The position numbers were made by a program, and so were the translations under genes. Source: a virus. From it: a DNA stretch of 23,924 nucleotides. Positions 2,416-21,594 of the stretch are shown here, piece after piece; the first letter of the stretch is position 1, and each line of letters begins with the position of its first letter. The notes beneath the pieces are model-generated. The model had not been told where the DNA came from. It did no database searches and saw nothing but the letters and a program-made list of their open reading frames with translations. The stretch covers positions 1 to 23,924 of IMG/VR virus record IMGVR_UViG_3300048927_000433; one strand, given 5' to 3'.

Positions 2416-2468
2416 ATTTCTTTGGTAGCCCCCCGAGAGTCGAACTCGGCACCAACGGATTATGAGTC
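2415..2468. repeat. attL: displaced tRNA 3' fragment
   Basis: A 54-base stretch repeated at 23867-23921 with a single-base difference: one G fewer before the run of six C. It contains the anticodon loop, T arm and CCA end of the tRNA in minus orientation. Host sequence lies to its left and truncated terL to its right. The one-base loss fits a copy no longer under selection. The last two bases of the terL stop codon's neighbourhood and the stop itself fall inside this core. Confidence 0.9.
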
Positions 2469-3818
2469 TGTCGCCTCTACGCCCTTGACGGGGATCTTTC
2501 CGTCGGCGCCGATATCCTGGATCAAGCCGGTACCGCTGGACTTGTCCTCGATGAGCAACTGCCGCAGCGGCGTCGAGAGCTTCGGGTTGAACGGCTTGTT
2601 CTTGGCCCAGAAGTCCACGGCCCGGCGCTTGAGCTCGGGCGCCTGCCATTTCCCGCGCAGCAGGTCCAGCAGGTACAGCTTGCCGTCGTCGCCCAGGCCC
2701 CAGCATTCGAATACGCTGTAGTCGTTGCGCTCAGCCGTCTTCTGGGCGGTATCCGCGAACACCTTGCGCGAGAGGATCCTCGGCGGCACCACATAACGCC
2801 CGAACCACGCACCCTTGATTAGGTCGCCGCCCAGCGGCGCCGGACGCTGCTGATATTGCGCCGAGAACACGTAGCGGCTGACCCGCGCGCCGTCCTGGTC
2901 GGCGCCCGCGCCGGCCTCCATGGCGAGCAGTTCCGCCAACGGCTCCTTGTACGGCCAGTAGCTAAAACGCCCCTTTTCGTCCCGGACACTGCTGTCGATC
3001 TTCGCCTGGAGGGACGCCGGCAGGCCGGCGCCGTATGCGTCATCGATCAGCGCAGGGATGACGACCTGTTCCCAGCCCGACCCAAGGTTGCCGGCCTCAA
3101 TGAAGCCGGTGACGTCCTCTTGCGCCAGGCGCTGCATGATCACGATGATCGGCGTGTCGGGGTTTGCCCGCCGGCTTTTCACCGTGGCGATCAGGTCGCG
3201 GTTTGCCTTGGCACGGCGCGGCTTGCTATACGCGTCGCCAACCTTGAGCGGGTCATCAATGACGATGGCGCCCTGCCACCCGTCCGCCATATGGCCGGCC
3301 CGGAAGCCGGTGATCTGGCCGCCGAGCGAAACCGCGTACACGCCGCCGGCCTTTCGGCCGTCGACCTCGATGTTCCAGCGCTTCTTGCTTTTGGCGTCTG
3401 CCGCTACTTTCAGCGGCCATAGCTCCTGGAATTCGTCCGACTGGACCAGTTCCTTGGCCGTCTGCGAGTTCAGCAGCGCTAGGTCGTCGGAATAGCTGAT
3501 GTGCAGGAACCGGGCGCGCGGGTTCAGCGCCAGGCCGCGGGCCATCAGGTTGATGGCGACCAGCTCGGTCTTCGACGAGCCCGGCGGCACGTTGATGACC
3601 AGGTTCTTGATGCGGCCGTCGATGACGGCCTGGACCTTCTCCGCGATCAGCTCATGGTGCCAGTTGACCCGGAACTTGATGGCCTGGCGGTGCTTGAAAA
3701 AGTACCGGCTGAAGAACAGGTGATCCTGCTCGCACATGGCCTTTGCAGTGGCGCGCAGGACAGCGGGGTCAGTAGTCGCCTTGGAGTTTGGCGACGGCGG
3801 CGGCGACTTGTGTTTCAT
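2460..3818 (-). pseudogene. terL: Terminase large subunit, truncated at attL
   Basis: The ATPase/nuclease motor that packages phage DNA. Seen in 452 residues: Walker A-like [11 protein letters not shown] (about 76-86), Walker B AIVIDDP (Asp188/189), and the start of the RuvC-like nuclease with Asp356 in FADTAQKT and Glu424 in [11 protein letters not shown]. The frame ends at GVEATDS, where the attL core supplies the stop codon. The usual C-terminal part with the last catalytic acidic cluster (HDD-type) is missing, so the nuclease should be dead. The start overlaps the terS frame by 50 bases. Either the rest was deleted together with the structural genes, or this phage form never carried it. 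The first is more likely. Confidence 0.85.
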
Positions 3819-4243
3819 CGACCACCACCGTTTTCTGTTCTATCGGGCCGCCGCCGACGCCCGTATGCTCCCGTCTGTTCGTGAAGGCGCCGCCGGCTTC
3901 CTTTGCGGCTTGCTCAAGGACTGCCGCGGCGCCGACGACGTTACCCCGGCTGATGTGCCGGTCATAGATCTTGCCCAGCGCCCGCAATCGGAACGCTTGG
4001 TCGGCGATCGGGATCTCGGCCACTTCCTGCCGGAATCGTTGCCGGGTGTCGTTGAACAGGTGGATCCACTTTGCCGCCAGAGTCTTGCCGGCAGCCTTCG
4101 TGGGGTCGTACTGCGCGACCTGCATGCGCGGTACCTCCAAATCCGAACTCATCTTTCACAGCCTCCGCCACCTAGCTGGGCGCGTCCCAACAGGCGAGCG
4201 CCTGGACGATGAAGCGCTTGTGGACGTCGGTTAGCTTTGGCAT
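3769..4243 (-). pseudogene. terS: Terminase small subunit (DUF2280 type), nonsense plus frameshift
   Basis: Intact relatives read as one protein of about 155 aa whose N-terminal helix-turn-helix binds the packaging site. Here translation from ATG 4243 gives MPKLTDVHKRFIVQ and on to DAPS, then TAG at 4172-4174 where the family has CAG (Gln). The same frame resumes with VAEAVKDEFG and then runs into a one-base insertion at the A/T run 4139-4141. The remainder (RMQVAQYDPTKAAGK to KLQGDY) is in another frame. The distal 127 residues stay open and could be made from internal ATGs, but would lack the DNA-binding part. The family likeness is recognised from memory; the lesions are read directly. Confidence 0.85.
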
Positions 4244-4359
4244 GGCCTAATCCGCTCCAACTGATTATCGGGACAGTGCAAAGATCGCCTGTAACAAAGC
4301 AACTTACAATCCGAATTCTCAAAGACGAAGGAATGCTCTACAGAACGGGGGAACGAACA

Positions 4360-5043
4360 ATGGAAGACATCGCTGACAAGGCACGGCGTAACCTGATGGG
4401 CGTCGCCGCCGGCATCGTCGCGGTTTGGGCACTAGATATCCCGCTGGATGGCAAGCTCGTGGGCGCGGTAAATCTGAACGAAGTTCAGCCTTGGCGCGCG
4501 TGGTTTTGTGCATTAATCGTGCTCGGATACTTCTACTGCCGGTTCAGGCTCGCGCCCGAAAACAAGGCGGGACGGATCAAGTACGTAGAAATTAAAGCAA
4601 AGACCGAGCAAGACAGAAATGCAGACTATGCGCGAGCGCAATTCGATGCACTTCGCACCGGAAGCGCCGTTTCACTAGGCTTCGACCTGGGCCAGCCTCC
4701 GTTCCAGCAACTTGTGCCTAAAGAAGCCTCCATGCAAGAAATAATCTGGGGTCCTCAAGACAAGCATGGGCTACCGGGGACCCTTACCTTCTATTGGCAA
4801 GAGCCCAGTGGGTCGAGCAGCGGCACTTGGATTGGCCAGGCCGAGTTTAAGATCCCTGGGGGCTGGCTGCGACACCAAGCACTGCTTTCTCATTGGCGCC
4901 GAGTGAGAAACCTAAATTGGGAAGGGCTAGAAGTCACGCTTCCAACGACTTTGACGCTTTTTGCTGCAGGAATCTGCATGGCCAAGCTCCTGGCCTCGCT
5001 GTACTACAGTTGGCCCTTCGCACGTCAAATGATCAATATTTGA
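4360..5043 (+). CDS. Membrane protein of unknown function, probable moron
   Basis: A 227-aa protein with two N-terminal membrane helices (around GVAAGIVAVWALDI and WFCALIVLGYFYCRF). A soluble middle rich in Trp and Gly follows, then a C-terminal hydrophobic helix (LFAAGICMAKLLASLYYS). I chose the ATG at 4360 because a run of five G lies 8 bases upstream; an ATG at 4333 is possible. It runs against the leftward phage genes and starts just behind the terS start. No homologue is recognised. Its place and membrane topology fit a prophage-encoded exclusion protein, but this is inference. Confidence 0.6.
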   Translation: MEDIADKARRNLMGVAAGIVAVWALDIPLDGKLVGAVNLNEVQPWRAWFCALIVLGYFYCRFRLAPENKAGRIKYVEIKAKTEQDRNADYARAQFDALRTGSAVSLGFDLGQPPFQQLVPKEASMQEIIWGPQDKHGLPGTLTFYWQEPSGSSSGTWIGQAEFKIPGGWLRHQALLSHWRRVRNLNWEGLEVTLPTTLTLFAAGICMAKLLASLYYSWPFARQMINI

Positions 5044-6503: not shown

Positions 6504-6593
6504 ATAAACTCAGGACGTGTTGGCGACGAATTCAGCTGCTGATTCCTCACCGATATTTTCCGGAACTGAAGTTTTTTGCACGGGGACCTCGAT

Positions 6594-7106
6594 TTGGAAG
6601 TGATTACAGGCCTAGCAATCGCTGGATCTTGCCTGCTCGTCGGCTTTGGCGCCGGGCGTTTACGTCGGCACGCATTACCAGCCGTCCGACGCCGCACCAG
6701 AGCGATGCAGCGGCGGAAGCCGCCGAGTGTTTCCGTAAAGACAGGCAAGACGGACCACATTCTCCAAGTCGACAGGTCACAAGCCATCCAATTGTGGATG
6801 CAATCATCGACGCAGGCGGCCGAAGTTGTGCGCGACCGCGTGAAATGGTTCGCAGGAGCATCGACTGTTTCCTTAGCTGTCACCGCGAGCCTATTGGCCG
6901 TGGCCAAGACTTCGAACCGGGATCTCATCTTCGCTGCCGTCCTATTTATCCTGGCCCTGTACGCCTCCCTGCTCCCCCTCGCCGGATTAGCGGATCAAAT
7001 GAATAAATCGACGCGCGTTATGGGGCAATCATTAGTGGATGCCCGGCCGGATTCATCCATAAATATTGCCCCCCCTATGTGTGGCCCTCCGTTAGCTCAC
7101 GCGTGA
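6594..7106 (+). CDS. Membrane protein of unknown function, possible frameshift at its end
   Basis: About 170 aa, with one membrane helix at the N-terminus (VITGLAIAGSCLLVGFGAG), an Arg-rich stretch and a soluble linker. Two closely spaced helices follow (ASTVSLAVTASLLAVA, LIFAAVLFILALYASLLPLA). There is no good ATG. TTG 6594, with GGGGA 8 bases before it, is my choice; TTG 6576 and GTG 6600 are in frame. A C7 run at about 7069-7075 precedes the last 10 codons. One more C would join the frame to a further membrane helix ending at 7174. Function unknown; it fits the set of rightward membrane genes in this prophage. Confidence 0.55.
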   Translation: MEVITGLAIAGSCLLVGFGAGRLRRHALPAVRRRTRAMQRRKPPSVSVKTGKTDHILQVDRSQAIQLWMQSSTQAAEVVRDRVKWFAGASTVSLAVTASLLAVAKTSNRDLIFAAVLFILALYASLLPLAGLADQMNKSTRVMGQSLVDARPDSSINIAPPMCGPPLAHA

Positions 7107-8098: not shown

Positions 8099-8157
8099 TC
8101 GCCGTCTTTTCATAAGCTTGTCGAATGTCAGCAGAGGGGCTGATCAAGGAGACACAT

Positions 8158-8537
8158 ATGAACAAAAGGTTGGGCGTAGGTGACGCGCTCGCAAATGTCC
8201 GGTTCGGAGACAACGCCATTCCACCGGATTTGCCGGGCAAGCTGTGGGAACCGAAATCGATCCCTGAATATGCCTTTGACGCTATCCGCGAGCAGGTTCA
8301 AGAGTTCGAGAAGGAACTCGCGAATTTTCCTGGCGCGTTCTCGGTAAGCCTCACCTCGGGAGGCTATGCCATGGCGGTCGACTCCATCCGGCTGCACGGC
8401 CAGTTCATCGTCTTTATCGGATGCGACGACAGCGGGGTACCGCTCCGCGTAGTCCAGCTTACACGCAGGTGTCGATGGTACTTTCGAAGGCCACACCAAT
8501 AAGCCCCAAGAAGCCGATCGGCTTTTACACCGATTGA
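8158..8537 (+). pseudogene. DUF6173-like protein, frameshifted near the C-terminus
   Basis: Begins at ATG 8158 with AAGGAG 6-7 bases upstream. The body (IPEYAFDAIREQVQEFEKEL, SLTSGGYAMAVDSI, FIVFIGCDDSGVPLRVVQ) resembles small phage and bacterial proteins of the DUF6173 type, as I recall them. As sequenced the frame ends LTRRCRWYFRRPHQ at 8502. One base put back after the Gln codon at 8455-8457 restores YTQVSMVLSKATPISPKKP, then IGFYTD and a stop at 8537. That ending matches the family pattern, so a one-base deletion near 8458 is likely. It carries its own ribosome site and terminator against the leftward phage genes. Function unknown. Confidence 0.7.
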
Positions 8538-8549
8538 GTCAACAAAAAA

Positions 8550-8575
8550 GCCCCGGTTTTTGGTCGGGGCGTTTC
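8550..8575 (+). terminator. Rho-independent terminator
   Basis: Arms GCCCCG and CGGGGC with a 9-base loop. The hairpin is preceded by six A and followed by GTTTCTTC. It lies 12 bases after the restored stop at 8537, which supports the view that the upstream gene once ended there. It may also act on the converging leftward nuclease transcript. Confidence 0.75.
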
Positions 8576-8698
8576 TTCAGGACGCACTTACTACGAGTAT
8601 GGCTAAATTTTGACATTTTTGTCCGGGCATGTCAAGTGGTTCGCTTAAAACCTATATATGTTGTGCCCTAACTGTTGGCAAGGAGCGCTACTGTAAGT

Positions 8699-9607
8699 TC
8701 AAGAACCTCCTGTTGCTGCAGCAATAGACGCGCGAATTCGCTTCAGCCCTTCTGTAGCATTGGCGTAAACAGCCTCAGAACGAATAATTCGTTGCGTAGT
8801 GTCCATGACGATTAAGCGACATTCCTCCAATGGATCATCTTCAGGCACCAATTTCCCCAACGGAGCCGCCGAACGCGGGCCCAGGACACACACAAAATGG
8901 TCATCTACTAGCCGCTTAGTTGCTTCCCACTCCATGAAATATCCCAGGCAGTAGTTCAGCCGACTTCGCTGCGAATGGAGTTCGTCGTATATCACGACCA
9001 AAACCAGCGCATTACGAGCAGTTGCTTCCTCCAATGCAGTGCTCAGGTCCGAATGAGGTTGCCGGAGAAAGAAGCGATCATGCACAGGCACGGGCACCAC
9101 TGGCGAGGCTGCATATTGCGAAGAAACCACCCACTGTTGAAATGAAATCGGCATGTACCGAGCTGCAAGGCTGCGCCCATTTGGGGAGTCAAGCAGCTTA
9201 TTCTCAATCAACTCTTTATCAAAGACCAGCAAACCAAATCTGGGCTTCAAAGCGGCCAGATGCACTGAAAGCGTACTGCTTGGAACCGTAGAGTAAAACC
9301 CGATGAAGCCGCTACACCCATGCGTTTCGAGACGATCTCGCATATTTATTTCATCGTTGTGACTGACTGCAGCACCCGATTGAACTTTGTGCTTGCAGCT
9401 GACAAGCCAAAGAATCTCAGTTTGCCCTCCAGGCCCGTCCCTAACCTCTTTAACCACCAGATCGCGGCCCGCATCCGGACCGCGATCCGGAGAAGACACG
9501 ATAATAAACCCCTGGGCAGCAAGAAAATCACGCGCAAACAGTTCGAATTGATCACGTTCCGTCCCAGCATGAGCGAGCGCGATCTCACCAAAGTTTAATG
9601 CTGGCAA
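8699..9607 (-). CDS. Mrr-like restriction endonuclease domain fused to a thioredoxin-like domain
   Basis: A 302-aa protein. The N-terminal domain (about 18-140) resembles Mrr-type PD-(D/E)XK nucleases: FELFARDFLAAQGF helix, DAGRDLVV with probable catalytic Asp49, and WLVSCKHK, where Lys72 fits the motif. The usual Glu/Gln two residues before that Lys is Ser, which is unusual. The second half (about 178-285) has a thioredoxin-like pattern (LSTALEEATARNALVLVVIY, then a long helix and HFVCVLG) without a CxxC pair, so it would be a binding or sensing fold and not a redox enzyme. The start is TTG 9607, supported by a perfect AGGAGGG 5 bases upstream. It is the second gene of a two-gene unit. Domain calls are from memory; defence is inferred. 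Confidence 0.75.
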   Translation of the reverse strand: MPALNFGEIALAHAGTERDQFELFARDFLAAQGFIIVSSPDRGPDAGRDLVVKEVRDGPGGQTEILWLVSCKHKVQSGAAVSHNDEINMRDRLETHGCSGFIGFYSTVPSSTLSVHLAALKPRFGLLVFDKELIENKLLDSPNGRSLAARYMPISFQQWVVSSQYAASPVVPVPVHDRFFLRQPHSDLSTALEEATARNALVLVVIYDELHSQRSRLNYCLGYFMEWEATKRLVDDHFVCVLGPRSAAPLGKLVPEDDPLEECRLIVMDTTQRIIRSEAVYANATEGLKRIRASIAAATGGS

Positions 9608-9691
9608 AATAACCCTCCTAAGCTTCAGATTACTAGTTATTAAAATTACTTTCCGAGTATATTTTTACACCCACACAACTCAGCGATCGTC

Positions 9692-10558
9692 TCAATAAGG
9701 CAAACTGGTTCCAAAACTCTCCGCAAGAATCGCATCCGATTCATCTTGAGTTAAAAACAACCTCGCCACTACGTGCAAATTTGTAACGTACTTTTCAAAC
9801 GTCTTCTCCGCCTCTTCCTCAAACTCGCCATAAACCTCCGCATTCCTAAGAATTTTAAGCATTTCATCAATATCAACATCCGATTCTGCGGGGCCATCAC
9901 TTAGACGCGCATCGAGAAAGACACCCAGCTTTTTAATCTCTTTTAACTCTCTAATCATCTCAGAGAGGCAATGCCTGCTTTTTCTTGCTACACAGAATTC
10001 TTGGTGATGATCTGAAAAAAATGCCAAATGTTTTAAAAATAGAATCCCTAGATCGCGATGCACCACATATTTAACTAGGGATCCTATCTTATCGAGCCCC
10101 ATCTCATTTAGCTCGTTATCCTCAGGAAAATAAACCTTAATAGTTTGTTGCTTCCGCCAACGTTTATCTTCCGCCAATTTTATATCGATGTACTTCTGCA
10201 GCCAGATGAAGTAGGCCCGTTTATCTTCCACAGACACATAGACTAGGAAAAAAGGAGCTTGAAACATCTTTGCATAAAGGAGGGTCTTCACGGGAACGTC
10301 CAATGAAATTTCTCCCTCTCCAAAGGCATCCATCCGCCCTTTGATTTGAAAAAGAAGCAAGGTGCCAGTGGGATCCTCACCCTCAAACTCTTCCAACATC
10401 ATGTCGATACCATAGTCTCTATCTTCTACCGATCTTTCTAGCCAGTCGGAAGTCAACTTTGTCCGAACAACTCTAACGGCGTCGGTATCGATTCTATGCG
10501 TGAGGCTGCGGCGAGGGGGTTGCGTATCGACGTTCGAGTGCGAAGATCTTTTTGCCAT
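9692..10558 (-). CDS. DUF4365-type nuclease-like protein, first gene of a putative defence pair
   Basis: A 288-aa protein. Residues 35-150 match the DUF4365 pattern: DWLERSVEDRDYGIDMMLEE, then LLLFQIKG. Asp52 and Gln71-x-Lys73 are the expected PD-(D/E)XK active-site residues. The C-terminal half is helical, acidic and unassigned (EEEAEKTFEKYV). The gene is plainly richer in A/T than the phage genes around it, with runs of A and T and many AAA/AAT codons, a sign of recent transfer. It ends 84 bases before the Mrr-like gene on the same strand, so the two are probably co-transcribed. No Shine-Dalgarno is evident before the ATG at 10558. DUF4365 proteins are common in defence islands; the function here is untested. 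Confidence 0.75.
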   Translation of the reverse strand: MAKRSSHSNVDTQPPRRSLTHRIDTDAVRVVRTKLTSDWLERSVEDRDYGIDMMLEEFEGEDPTGTLLLFQIKGRMDAFGEGEISLDVPVKTLLYAKMFQAPFFLVYVSVEDKRAYFIWLQKYIDIKLAEDKRWRKQQTIKVYFPEDNELNEMGLDKIGSLVKYVVHRDLGILFLKHLAFFSDHHQEFCVARKSRHCLSEMIRELKEIKKLGVFLDARLSDGPAESDVDIDEMLKILRNAEVYGEFEEEAEKTFEKYVTNLHVVARLFLTQDESDAILAESFGTSLPY

Positions 10559-10582: not shown

Positions 10583-10689
10583 GTGGTCACGATTCTATAG
10601 GAATCCTAATCGTTGGCATTCTGAGTCGCTACAATACCGTTGTAAGTCGTAAATCCACATCGGGTGGAATGCAACGTACAGGCACCAGC

Positions 10690-11244
10690 TCAAGAACTCA
10701 GCGCAGCGCCGACCACAATCCCAACATCCGCCATAGCTAGTTGAAGTTCGGCCAGCGCTTTCTCGCCCTCGGACCCAGCCAGGCGCCGATAAGCCTGCAA
10801 CACGTCATGCAGCGTGGACTTTGGCACATCAAACCGGTCTGATAGATCGCGAATCCGCGGCCTCCCTCGCAGCATCCGGCAAACCAGCATGTCGGTCACC
10901 AGCCGCTCCCTGCCCTCACCCACTGGGTTCAACCATTCCGACACGGCCCGCGCGCTCTCTGCGCCTTCGAGCCCTGTCGCATGTTGCGCGCGTAGAAGAT
11001 GGAAGCCGATGCTGTCGCCCAGCGTGCGCTCCATCAACTTCACGATGAAGACGGCCTGCGCATGCCACTCATGCGGCGTCAAGCCAGACAGCTCCTTGCG
11101 TTCATACGTTGCATCGAACCGGTCCCGCAATGCCTCGCAGATCAACTGTGTCGGATTCTTCGGCTCGATGGGCATGGCCAGCATCAGATAGGCCACAGCG
11201 ATCGCGTGCTCCGCGCATGCAAAGGTCCCTGCGTCACGGCGCAT
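10690..11244 (-). CDS. Putative phage late-gene regulator with helix-turn-helix
   Basis: A 184-aa protein. The second half carries a likely DNA-binding helix-turn-helix (RGRPRIRDLSDRFDVPKSTL followed by HDVLQAYRRLAG). The front (AIAVAYLMLAM) may be over-extended, since ATGs at about 11184 and 11175 are in frame. The chosen start overlaps the end of rusA by 11 bases, so translation is probably coupled. Being last in the replication operon, directly after a RusA resolvase, is where lambdoid phages carry the late regulator or antiterminator Q. That is the basis of the call, not sequence identity. Beyond it the normal late genes are gone and the AT-rich cassette begins. Confidence 0.6.
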   Translation of the reverse strand: MRRDAGTFACAEHAIAVAYLMLAMPIEPKNPTQLICEALRDRFDATYERKELSGLTPHEWHAQAVFIVKLMERTLGDSIGFHLLRAQHATGLEGAESARAVSEWLNPVGEGRERLVTDMLVCRMLRGRPRIRDLSDRFDVPKSTLHDVLQAYRRLAGSEGEKALAELQLAMADVGIVVGAALSS

Positions 11245-17832: not shown

Positions 17833-18636
17833 ATGCACCAACGCATCATCCCTATCCGGGCGTCCAGCCTGGCCGAGCTTTTCGACTGCCCCGCCCGCTG
17901 GGAAGCCAAGAACCTGCTGGGCATGCGCATGCCGTCATCCGGCGCGGCACGCCTTGGCACGGCCATCCACGCTGGCACGGCCGCTTTCGACCAAGCCAAG
18001 CTCCACGGCAATCCCATCACCCCTGACGACGCTGCAGGCGAATTCGTGAAGTCTCTGTACGGCAACGACGAGGAGGTCGATTGGGACGACGCAAGTCCGA
18101 AGGATGCCGAGCGCATCGGCCTGGCGCTGCACACGCGCTACTGCGCGCTGATCGCCCCGCATCAGGACTACGTCGCGGTGGAGCTGACGTGCGATCGCAT
18201 GGAGATAACGGACCTCGGCATCGCGCTTACTGGCACGACCGACCGCGTCCGGCGCACGGCCAGCGGCGAGCTGGGCATTGCCGACCTCAAGAGCGGCGCG
18301 CGCGCCGTAGGCTCGGACGGAGCAGTCAGCACCGCCGGGCACGGTCCTCAGATGGGCGTTTACGAGATCCTCGCCCAGCACGCAATCGGCAAGCCCATCT
18401 CCGCACCCGCGCAAATCATCGGCTTGCAGACCGGCAAAACCGCCACCGCGCAGCGCATTGGCACCGGGGAGATCTCCGGCGCGCGCGATGCGCTCGTCGG
18501 CGACGAAAGCAGCCCCGGCTTGCTCCAGCATGCCGCGCGCCTCATTCACAGCGGCAGCTTCTACGGCAACCCCAAATCCGTCCTCTGTTCGGGCAGGTAC
18601 TGCCCGCGTCATTCCACCTGCAAGTTCAAAGGCTAA
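17833..18636 (+). CDS. RecB/Cas4-like exonuclease with predicted Fe-S cluster
   Basis: A 267-aa PD-(D/E)XK nuclease that would resect DNA ends for recombination. Seen: LGTAIHAG (His46, the RecB-type first motif), LTGTTDRV (Asp137) and GIADLKSG (Asp151-x-Lys153). Four Cys, one at 19 (FDCPARW) and three at the end (C252, C257, C263 in CSGRYCPRHSTC), have the AddB/Cas4 spacing for a 4Fe-4S cluster. It lies 3 bases before a RecT-like annealing gene, the usual exonuclease-annealase pair. All expected residues are present. The alternative names lambda Exo or RecE are less likely because of the Cys pattern. Confidence 0.82.
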   Translation: MHQRIIPIRASSLAELFDCPARWEAKNLLGMRMPSSGAARLGTAIHAGTAAFDQAKLHGNPITPDDAAGEFVKSLYGNDEEVDWDDASPKDAERIGLALHTRYCALIAPHQDYVAVELTCDRMEITDLGIALTGTTDRVRRTASGELGIADLKSGARAVGSDGAVSTAGHGPQMGVYEILAQHAIGKPISAPAQIIGLQTGKTATAQRIGTGEISGARDALVGDESSPGLLQHAARLIHSGSFYGNPKSVLCSGRYCPRHSTCKFKG

Positions 18637-18639
18637 ATC

Positions 18640-19803
18640 ATGACCCAGACCGCAACCATTCAGAACCTGCGTGCTGCACCGGAAGCGCAAATGCCCATCG
18701 TGGCCCCCGGCTTCGGCAGCCTGCAGGGCTTCGAACTTATGCAGCGCGCCGCGCGCCTTCTGTCCAGCAGCACCCTTGTGCCCGTGGCTTATCGCCAGAC
18801 GATCGAGAAGCTGGACCGCTTCGGCAACGTCAAGGAAAGTCGCGAGAACCCGAACGCGCTGGCCAACTCCGTTGTCGCCCTGAACATGGCGCAGCGCATG
18901 GGCGCCGACCCGCTGATGGTGATGCAGAACCTGTACATCGTCGAGGGCCGGCCGTCCTGGTCCTCGCAGTGGATCATCGCCGCGATCAATGGTTGCGGCC
19001 GATTCTCCCCTCTGCGCTTTCGCATCGAGAGCCGCGGTGAGCGCGAGGTCGAATACAAGTCGACCTATTGGGAAAACAGCCAGCGTCACACCAAGGTCGA
19101 GAAGGTCAAGATCAACGACAAGGTGTGCGTGGCATGGGCCATCGAGAAGGAAACGGGCGAGGTGATCGAGTCGCCCGCGGTTTCAATCGAGATGGCGGTG
19201 CTGGAAGGCTGGTACACGAAGAACGGCAGCAAGTGGCAGACCATGGACGAGGTCATGCTCCGGTACCGCACTGCGTCGTTCTTCGGCAAGCTGTACGCGC
19301 CCGAATTGCTTATGGGCCTGCAGACGGTCGAAGAGGCGCAGGACATTATCGAAGCCACCACCGGCCCCGACGGCACGATCAGCGTGAACGTGGACGATCT
19401 GCGTGGCGGCGCTGCGCAGCCCCAACGCCAGCCGGTGGCCGCAGACGTCACCGACGTCGAGGCACGCGACAGCAAAGCCGCCCAGGGCGCACAACCCGAG
19501 GCACCAGAAGCCGAGGTCGACGGCGCTCGGCAAGACGCGTCATCGGTCAGCCCAGAAGAATCGGATCTGCCCCACACCTCACATGACGACGATGGCGGCG
19601 AGAGCCTCGACCCGGTCAAGGTGGAAGAGCAGTTGCGGGCCGCGAAGACTGTCGACGTTCTGGACGTAGCGGCCGATTACCTGCCTGGCATTACAAATGA
19701 TGACGAACGGCACCGGCTGACCAAGCTTTACCGACAGCTGCGCCTGTCCCTGACCAATGCCCAGCAGCGTGCACCGCGCCGCCGCGTGGCCGCGCCGGAA
19801 TAA
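18640..19803 (+). CDS. RecT-like single-strand annealing protein
   Basis: A 387-aa protein. The core (about 70-230) has the pattern of phage annealing proteins: NALANSVVALNMAQRMGADP, LYIVEGRPSWSSQWIIAAIN, and later RYRTASFFGKLYAPELLMGL. It would coat single strands made by the upstream nuclease and pair them with homologous DNA. From about residue 250 a long acidic, Ala/Gln-rich linker leads to a short helical C-terminal part (EQLRAAKTVDVLDVAADYLP), probably a partner-binding tail. It is co-transcribed with the nuclease and the ATPase, 3 and 9 bases away. The family call is from memory. Confidence 0.75.
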   Translation: MTQTATIQNLRAAPEAQMPIVAPGFGSLQGFELMQRAARLLSSSTLVPVAYRQTIEKLDRFGNVKESRENPNALANSVVALNMAQRMGADPLMVMQNLYIVEGRPSWSSQWIIAAINGCGRFSPLRFRIESRGEREVEYKSTYWENSQRHTKVEKVKINDKVCVAWAIEKETGEVIESPAVSIEMAVLEGWYTKNGSKWQTMDEVMLRYRTASFFGKLYAPELLMGLQTVEEAQDIIEATTGPDGTISVNVDDLRGGAAQPQRQPVAADVTDVEARDSKAAQGAQPEAPEAEVDGARQDASSVSPEESDLPHTSHDDDGGESLDPVKVEEQLRAAKTVDVLDVAADYLPGITNDDERHRLTKLYRQLRLSLTNAQQRAPRRRVAAPE

Positions 19804-19812
19804 GGAGCCAAT

Positions 19813-21594
19813 ATGCGAATCCACCGAATCACCACCGAGAACTTCCAGGGCGCGCGTGCAGTGGACCTGGACCTGCGCACGCCCGCTACCCTGATCGCCG
19901 GCCCGAACGGCGCCGGCAAGTCCAGCATTGCCGAGGCCGTGCGGCTGGCGCTGCTGGGCACGCCCGAGCGCGTGGGCCTGAAGAAGGAATACGGCGCGCT
20001 GGTCAGCGATGGCGCAAAACTGGGCGCTGTAACGCTGGATCTGGACCTGGGCGCCGTCGGCATCAGCCTGCCCAAGGGCGCGCAGTCCGGCGAGGCCTTG
20101 GTGCCCCAGTCGCCCGTTCTGCCGTTTGTCCTAGCGCCGGAGCGTTTCGCCGCCGCCAAGCCGGACGAACGCCGCAGCCTGCTGTTCGCGCTGACCGGGA
20201 CCAACGTTAAGGCAGACGAGATCGAGCGCCGCTTGTTGGCGCGCGGCTGCGCTGCCTCGCTCGTCACCCAGATCAAGCCCGTCCTGCGCACCGGCTTTGC
20301 CGGCGGCGCGGATTTTGCCAAGGGGCAGGCGACTGAGGCCAAGGGTGCCTGGAAGACCGCCACAGGCGAACAGTGGGGCAGCCAGAAGGCCGAGGGCTGG
20401 CAGGCCGAAATCCCACCGTTCGACGAGACCGTACTGGACAAGGCGCGCGCAGACCTGACCGCACTGGACAGCCGTATCGACGCTACCGCGCAGTCCTTGG
20501 GTGCGCTGGAGCAAAAGGCATCCGCCTATGCGGCAGCCCGGGACCAGCTGGCGGCGCGCCAGGCCAAGACCGCCCAACTGCCGGCGCTACGTCAGAAACT
20601 GGAATTTGACCAGGAAGAGCACGGCAAGCTTGCCGCGCGCGTAGACGCGCTGCAGGCGAAGGCGGGAACAGGGCCGCGCGAGGGACTGGTTCACGACCTG
20701 GCACGCTGCCTTTCGCGCCTCTGGGCATCTGAGGCGTCCAAAAACGTAGCCTTCGGCATTGGCCTGGATATCAAAGAGGTGCTGGCGATCTATAAGCGGC
20801 AGTACGGCAAGATCGGGGCCGCCGGCGATATCGAGGCGGCCGCCGCGCTGCCCAAAGCTATCGAAGCCCGCGACCTGATGGCGCGCAGCGTCGAAAACGA
20901 CCGGCGCGACATCGCCGCAGCCGAAGCGGCGGCTGAGCAGCTGCAGGCCAGCGCCGCGCCCGAGGCAGTCCAGCCCGCCGACGTGGAAGGCGCGCGCGCC
21001 AAGGTCACAGCGCTCCGCGCCGAACGCAAGGCGATTGACGAGCGCGTCCAGCAGCTGCTCAACGCCAAGCGCGCGGCCACCAGCGCCACCGAGCGCACCG
21101 CGAACGCCGCGCAGTACCACCAGGATGTACTGGCCTGGTCCGCGATCAGCGACGCGCTGTCGCCCGACGGCATCCCGGGCGAGATCCTGGCCGAGGCCCT
21201 GCAGCCGGTGAACGACAAGCTCGCCGACTTGGCCGACCTGGCCGGCTGGCGCGTGCCCGCCATCGGCGCCGATATGGTCATCACCTTCGCCGGCCGCCCC
21301 TACCGGCTGCTGTCCGAGTCCGAGCGCTGGCGCGTGGACGCGCTCGTCGGCGCGGCCCTGGCCGAAATCTCCGGTCTGCGCTGCTTGATCCTGGACCGCT
21401 TCGACTGCCTCGACCTGCCTGGCCGGAGCGACGCCCTCGGCTTGGTGGACACCCTGGCTGCCGACGGCCGCATAGACACGGTCTTGGTCCTGGGCACCCT
21501 CAAGGCCGCGCCGCCGGCGCCCTCGGATGCATTCACCGTGCACTGGATCGATAAGGGCCACGCTGGCCCGTCCAAGCTTAAGGAGGCGGCATGA
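19813..21594 (+). CDS. Rad50/SbcC-like AAA ATPase
   Basis: A 593-aa SMC-type ATPase. Walker A is GPNGAGKS (30-37). Near the end are the ABC-like signature LLSESERWRVDALVGAALAE and Walker B LRCLILDRFD. The middle is Ala/Glu/Gln-rich coiled coil, short for the family, with possible breaks around residue 300. AAGGAG lies 6 bases before the ATG. With the adjacent nuclease and annealing protein it makes a recombination set. Rad50-type ATPases normally pair with an Mre11-type nuclease, which is absent here. The Cas4-like enzyme may be the partner. Family firm, partner inferred. Confidence 0.82.
   Translation: MRIHRITTENFQGARAVDLDLRTPATLIAGPNGAGKSSIAEAVRLALLGTPERVGLKKEYGALVSDGAKLGAVTLDLDLGAVGISLPKGAQSGEALVPQSPVLPFVLAPERFAAAKPDERRSLLFALTGTNVKADEIERRLLARGCAASLVTQIKPVLRTGFAGGADFAKGQATEAKGAWKTATGEQWGSQKAEGWQAEIPPFDETVLDKARADLTALDSRIDATAQSLGALEQKASAYAAARDQLAARQAKTAQLPALRQKLEFDQEEHGKLAARVDALQAKAGTGPREGLVHDLARCLSRLWASEASKNVAFGIGLDIKEVLAIYKRQYGKIGAAGDIEAAAALPKAIEARDLMARSVENDRRDIAAAEAAAEQLQASAAPEAVQPADVEGARAKVTALRAERKAIDERVQQLLNAKRAATSATERTANAAQYHQDVLAWSAISDALSPDGIPGEILAEALQPVNDKLADLADLAGWRVPAIGADMVITFAGRPYRLLSESERWRVDALVGAALAEISGLRCLILDRFDCLDLPGRSDALGLVDTLAADGRIDTVLVLGTLKAAPPAPSDAFTVHWIDKGHAGPSKLKEAA

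What the first reader, a model, noticed from the sequence alone, without database searches (positions are those of the whole stretch)
8699..10558. Two-nuclease cassette (DUF4365 protein plus Mrr-like/thioredoxin-like fusion) as a candidate new antiphage system
An AT-rich two-gene unit sits in a GC-rich decaying prophage exactly where late genes should begin. The first gene has DUF4365 nuclease residues (Asp52, Gln71-x-Lys73). The second has an Mrr-like nuclease (Asp49, Lys72, with Ser in the usual Glu/Gln place) fused to a thioredoxin-like domain without CxxC. The second starts at a TTG behind a perfect AGGAGGG. Both frames are intact while phage genes on either side are broken, which suggests retention by selection. 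I know of no described system with this exact pair, but cannot search.
Basis: partly seen in the sequence, partly recalled or inferred. Interest (0 to 1): 0.8.

Follow-up and report, generated by a model that had tools for sequence, protein, structure and literature searches.

The report
Two unrelated nuclease cargo genes
A decaying bacterial virus carries two foreign DNA-cutting-enzyme genes in its cargo slot; they look like separate candidate antivirus genes rather than one new system, and one joins a nuclease to a domain also present in the model of a known defence kinase.

Summary
Both ORFs are real, intact and AT-rich. Gene 1 (9692-10558, -) is a DUF4365 protein with Asp52 and Gln71-x-Lys73. 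Gene 2 (8699-9607, -; TTG start behind AGGAGGG) is an Mrr-type nuclease domain with Asp49/Ser70-x-Lys72 plus a thioredoxin/UAS-like domain without CxxC. They lie between a conserved putative late regulator and a lambda pR'/tR'-like promoter-terminator. That interval is a cargo slot: about 130 bp in two related phages, other genes in the rest, including a 520-aa DUF4365-like protein in one.

The two-gene-system interpretation is not supported. In 13 whole records carrying gene 2 relatives, none has a DUF4365 match (positive control rings). The three full-length relatives of gene 2 have different neighbours, and plasmids carrying relatives of either gene belong to different genera.

Gene 2 belongs to a scattered family of apparently single-gene phage and plasmid cargo nucleases with an invariant WLVSCKH motif, including the lone ORF in the Z-region of prophage P2-EC67. 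Its C-terminal domain matches the C-terminus of the PADLOC model of defence kinase PD-T4-6 (E = 8e-22). Best reading: two independent prophage-borne defence candidates; gene 2 is a new domain combination of known parts. Nothing has been tested experimentally.

The parts
9692..10558 (-). Gene 1: 288-aa DUF4365 PD-(D/E)XK nuclease candidate (Asp52, Gln71-x-Lys73); C-terminal part helical in a poor single-sequence model
   Evidence: PF14280 E=2.6e-14; motif alignment; model pLDDT 47
8699..9607 (-). Gene 2: 302-aa Mrr-like nuclease domain (about residues 1-165; Asp49, Ser70-x-Lys72) fused to a thioredoxin/UAS-like domain (about 169-293) that matches the C-terminus of the PD-T4-6 model
   Evidence: PF04471 E=1.7e-4; PDLC04063 positions 429-553/564 E=8.1e-22; Foldseek to UAS/thioredoxin folds and MspJI/AspBHI
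9613..9619 (-). AGGAGGG ribosome-binding site of gene 2, 5 nt before the TTG start
   Evidence: sequence
9608..9691 (-). 84-bp AT-rich (GC 0.36) gap between gene 1 and gene 2; the genes do not overlap
10592..10619 (-). Weak promoter-like match upstream of gene 1 (ATGCCA-16-TAGAAT, 9 of 12); not above chance counts
10690..11244 (-). Conserved intact phage gene at the upstream border of the cargo slot; putative late regulator (Q-like) by position only
   Evidence: 87% identity over 180/180 residues to L013; 16 relatives; only weak HTH matches
8607..8635 (-). Late-promoter-like element TTGACA-17-CAAAAT, with GGACAA conserved in the spacer, at the downstream border of the cargo slot
8544..8570 (-). 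Terminator just after that promoter (GCCCCGACCAAAAACCGGGGC then T-run), a pR'/tR'-like arrangement conserved in the seven aligned sequences

Best explanation
The unit is two independently acquired cargo genes in a variable slot between the Q-like gene and the late promoter of a defective lambda-like prophage. Each is most likely a stand-alone anti-phage or superinfection-exclusion nuclease. Gene 2 most likely works as a single protein: its thioredoxin/UAS-like domain acts as a binding or sensing module for an infection cue and licenses the Mrr-like domain to cut DNA. That module also appears in the model of the defence kinase PD-T4-6. Gene 1 probably cuts nucleic acid through its DUF4365 active site; its trigger is unknown. 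Shown: ORFs, domains, motifs, slot, lack of co-occurrence in the sample. Inferred: nuclease activity, sensing role, anti-phage function.
For: Domains. Fold. Slot: the homologous interval is about 130 bp in L019 and L021 and holds different genes in L009, L012 and L013. Independence: no DUF4365 in 13 whole records with gene 2 relatives (control), no gene 1 relative in G001 or G002, disjoint plasmid genera, no shared neighbour family around gene 2 relatives apart from phage backbone or near-identical loci. Cargo habit of the gene 2 family: lone ORF in the P2-EC67 Z-region, after the tail-fibre assembly gene in an E. coli prophage remnant, on a 4.9-kb plasmid, beside a PDC-S06 candidate-defence ATPase and a NACHT protein. 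The second P2 locus enriched in defence systems, which carries fun, is described in PMC9519451. Codon-position divergence 3 > 1 > 2 in both domains of gene 2 for most ortholog pairs fits protein-level constraint.
Against: No activity data. Ser replaces the usual Glu/Gln in the catalytic triad, so cleavage is not certain. The P2-EC67 relative shares only the nuclease half and has no PADLOC defence match beyond a weak one. The slot also holds genes that do not look like defence (paired 487- and 476-aa ORFs in L013). Few full-length relatives (three outside the window). The two genes share strand, low GC and adjacency, which would also fit an operon.
Confidence: 0.6

Rival explanations
1. A true two-gene defence system: gene 1 and gene 2 are co-transcribed and act together, one as sensor or accessory and the other as effector.
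For: Same strand, 84 bp apart, both AT-rich, together in one slot.
Against: No co-occurrence in 13 whole records or in two genomes with close gene 2 relatives; disjoint plasmid genera; different overall GC (0.44 against 0.52); gene 2 relatives sit alone between P2 inverted repeats and on a tiny plasmid.
Confidence: 0.12
2. Modification-dependent (type IV-like) restriction: gene 2 recognises modified phage DNA and cuts it, and gene 1 is unrelated.
For: Foldseek places the nuclease half near AspBHI and MspJI, modification-dependent enzymes; Mrr_cat match.
Against: No Mrr_N or SRA-like reader domain found by Pfam; the other half is a thioredoxin-like fold; Ser replaces the Gln of the catalytic motif; fold E-values are modest (1e-3 to 3e-3).
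Confidence: 0.15
3. Cargo with a non-defence role or already inactive remnants: lysogenic-conversion or phage-fitness genes drifting in a dying prophage.
For: Late genes of this prophage are broken; some slot occupants in relatives do not look like defence.
Against: Both frames and catalytic motifs are intact; gene 2 relatives show protein-level constraint and lie in defence-associated places.
Confidence: 0.13

Closest known systems
PD-T4-6 (PADLOC PDLC04063; eukaryotic-like Ser/Thr kinase defence protein)
   Same: C-terminal about 125 residues of gene 2 match model positions 429-553 at E=8e-22; L004 and L002 relatives match too
   Different: Gene 2 has an Mrr-like nuclease where the PD-T4-6 model has a kinase domain (matches in genomes cover positions of about 17-300)
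P2-EC67 Z-region ORF1 (CAD54909) and E. coli prophage homologs
   Same: 39% identity over gene 2 residues 9-174 including the nuclease motif; single-gene phage cargo
   Different: The C-terminal half is not detectably related; no significant PADLOC defence assignment
Mrr / MspJI / AspBHI restriction endonuclease catalytic domains
   Same: Mrr_cat PF04471 and Foldseek matches
   Different: Ser-x-Lys instead of Gln/Glu-x-Lys; no known DNA-reader domain
DUF4365 nuclease of SPARDA-type short Argonaute systems (PMC10810196)
   Same: Gene 1 has the DUF4365 domain with the Gln-x-Lys pair (Q62/K64 in TmuRE)
   Different: No Argonaute in the flanking genes scanned; short C-terminal region instead of a recognised APAZ domain
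PADLOC candidate PDC-M58A
   Same: Weakly matched by gene 2 family relatives L005 and L007 (E=3.9e-5 and 1.6e-4)
   Different: The window protein itself gives no match

Membership tests
PD-T4-6 | N-terminal Ser/Thr kinase domain | tested here: not met
   Pfam finds only Mrr_cat in gene 2; the PADLOC match covers model positions 429-553 only
PD-T4-6 | C-terminal domain of the PADLOC model | tested here: met
   E=8.1e-22; relatives E=1.6e-24 and 2.3e-20
Mrr-type (type IV) restriction enzyme | Mrr_cat catalytic domain | tested here: met
   PF04471 22.1 bits against cut-off 21, E=1.7e-4; marginal, supported by fold
Mrr-type (type IV) restriction enzyme | D-x(n)-(E/Q)-x-K active site | tested here: not met
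   Asp49 and Lys72 present, Ser70 in the Glu/Gln place, invariant in the nine aligned proteins
Mrr-type (type IV) restriction enzyme | DNA-reader domain (Mrr_N, SRA) | tested here: not met
   No such Pfam match in gene 2
SPARDA / DUF4365-APAZ short Argonaute system | DUF4365 nuclease with Gln-x-Lys | tested here: met
   PF14280 E=2.6e-14; Gln71-x-Lys73
SPARDA / DUF4365-APAZ short Argonaute system | Adjacent short Argonaute gene and APAZ domain | tested here: not met
   Pfam on gene 1 and on the flanking genes shows neither; weak APAZ resemblance cannot be fully excluded
A two-gene DUF4365 + Mrr/thioredoxin system | Conserved co-occurrence of the two genes | tested here: not met
   0 of 13 whole records with gene 2 relatives have DUF4365
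Any anti-phage defence system | Protection against phage infection | not testable with these tools
   Needs plating assays

The most novel reading that the evidence does not exclude
The thioredoxin/UAS-like domain of gene 2 is an exchangeable infection-sensing module that different defence proteins attach to different effectors: a kinase in PD-T4-6 and an atypical Ser-x-Lys Mrr-like nuclease here. Gene 2 and its WLVSCKH relatives would then be an undescribed family of single-gene phage-borne defences with swappable C-terminal sensors.
Probability: 0.25. Interest if true: 0.65.

Novelty: new variant of a known kind. Interest (0 to 1): 0.4.

Why it matters
If gene 2 protects, its C-terminal domain would link a nuclease to a functionally selected defence kinase and give a direct way to find what that domain senses: swap it between the two effectors. 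The WLVSCKH family would add a recurrent cargo type in P2-like and other temperate phages. As a two-gene system the finding does not stand.

Tried and rejected
Two-gene system: rejected for lack of co-occurrence. Relatives in viral contigs with gene 1 alone, gene 2 alone, a gene 1 alignment and a C-domain alignment: none; the gene 2 alignment gave seven. C-domain profile over 399 Pseudomonadota and 295 genomes of the order of G001: only the known P. lopnurensis protein, so the domain is rare there. Whole PD-T4-6 model over 185 genomes: the matches listed cover the kinase part, uninformative for the C-domain. PDB sequence search: nothing useful for either gene. Gene 1 structure: single sequence, pLDDT 47, not interpreted. 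Flanking repeats that could mark an insertion: only weak 14-16-nt pairs. Naming the phage or host: no match for the Q-like protein among phage records and none for the MFS gene among plasmids. One script loaded the wrong records and was rerun.

Full report
Observation. The window is an IMG/VR virus record. On the minus strand, two intact ORFs of 288 aa (9692-10558) and 302 aa (8699-9607) follow a 184-aa phage gene (10690-11244). Gene 1 is a DUF4365 protein (E=2.6e-14); gene 2 has an Mrr_cat domain (E=1.7e-4, just above the curated cut-off). The TTG start of gene 2 lies 5 nt behind AGGAGGG. Both genes are AT-rich relative to the phage (GC3 0.45 and 0.49 against 0.60-0.85 in the phage genes compared).

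Correction on decay. The small terminase has an in-frame stop and a frameshift, the Dam methylase a frameshift, and the large terminase ends at residue 448 of 527. The Q-like gene on the other side is intact at 87% identity. Intact cassette genes are therefore not exceptional in this element.

Site. Sixteen phage contigs carry the Q-like gene. In several, as in the window, the interval downstream ends at a conserved element of about 95 bp: TTGACA-17-CAAAAT on the minus strand with GGACAA conserved in the spacer, followed at once by a GC-rich terminator. By position and structure this resembles the pR'-tR' late promoter and terminator of lambdoid phages (established knowledge; function inferred). 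The interval is about 130 bp in L019 and L021, 2.1 kb in the window, 1.9 kb with a 520-aa DUF4365-like protein in L012 (Pfam E=0.0018, below cut-off, motif residues aligned), 2.1 kb of AT-rich DNA with two opposite-strand ORFs in L009, and 3.3 kb in L013. It is a cargo slot.

Gene 2. Full-length relatives occur in Pseudomonas lopnurensis (68%), Pseudochelatococcus lubricantis (57%) and a Rhizobium plasmid (57%). More distant relatives share only the nuclease half and carry other C-termini, several with paired cysteines. WLVSCKH and Asp49 are invariant among the nine aligned proteins. Contexts: the lone ORF between inverted repeats in the P2-EC67 Z-region, 13 E. coli genomes, one shown after a tail-fibre assembly gene, a 4.9-kb Acinetobacter plasmid, and beside a PDC-S06 ATPase and a NACHT protein in P. 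lopnurensis. Vassallo et al. describe a second P2 locus enriched in defence systems that carries fun (PMC9519451); that the Z-region is this locus is my knowledge. The C-terminal 125 residues match the C-terminus of the PADLOC PD-T4-6 model at E=8e-22, also in two relatives. The AlphaFold model (pLDDT 75, eight sequences) gives thioredoxin-like secondary structure; Foldseek finds the UBXD7 UAS domain, other thioredoxin folds, and the AspBHI and MspJI nucleases, at modest E-values. Codon-position divergence is consistent with protein-level constraint.

Gene 1. Its nearest relatives are DUF4365 proteins at 34% identity on plasmids of Providencia, Proteus and others, covering residues 17-206; the two loci read have different neighbours from the window. 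DUF4365 is the nuclease domain of some short Argonaute systems, where Q62 and K64 of TmuRE are potential active-site residues and the complex degrades DNA nonspecifically once activated (PMC10810196). No Argonaute was found in the flanking genes scanned here.

Pairing. DUF4365 was absent from all 13 whole records holding gene 2 relatives, while the same search found it in the window and in a Providencia plasmid. Neither genome with a close gene 2 relative has a gene 1 relative. Plasmid genera with gene 1 and gene 2 relatives do not overlap. No other gene family recurs next to gene 2 apart from phage backbone or near-identical loci. The two genes also differ in GC (0.44 and 0.52). The simplest reading is two separate arrivals in one slot. 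The sample is small, and a rare association remains possible.

Conclusion. Two candidate stand-alone prophage-borne nucleases, with gene 2 a new combination of known parts. Defence function, nuclease activity and the sensing role of the C-domain are inference.

Noticed in passing
window 4237-5043 (+): 268-aa ORF on the opposite strand inserted between the terminase and metallopeptidase genes relative to related phages; possible further cargo, no Pfam or PHROG match.
   Followed up: partly
window 6576-7106 (+): Opposite-strand ORF in a stretch absent or shorter in related phages, between the metallopeptidase region and the Dam methylase.
   Followed up: no
window 8125-8502 (+): 125-aa opposite-strand ORF between the Dam methylase and the pR'/tR'-like element; no Pfam match.
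   Followed up: no
window 2460-3818 (-): Large terminase cut at residue 448 of 527 with an MFS transporter gene beyond it: the prophage appears to have lost its structural genes.
   Followed up: partly
L012:8605-10167: 520-aa protein with a weak DUF4365 match and aligned catalytic residues alone in the same cargo slot of a related phage.
   Followed up: partly
L009:8579-10366: Two opposite-strand genes in an AT-rich 2.1-kb insert at the same cargo slot.
   Followed up: no
L028:4676-10317: A gene 2 family member lies between what read as the specificity and restriction subunit genes of a type I restriction system (my reading, no HMM run).
   Followed up: no
L002:3324-12293: The P. lopnurensis gene 2 relative lies between a PDC-S06 AAA_13 ATPase and a NACHT protein, a small defence island.
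   Followed up: partly
L004:9047-9811: Gene downstream of the Rhizobium gene 2 relative has a weak KwaA match (E=0.0011).
   Followed up: no
window 17833-21594 (+): Exonuclease, RecT-like annealing protein and SbcC-like ATPase in a row: an intact-looking phage recombination module.
   Followed up: no
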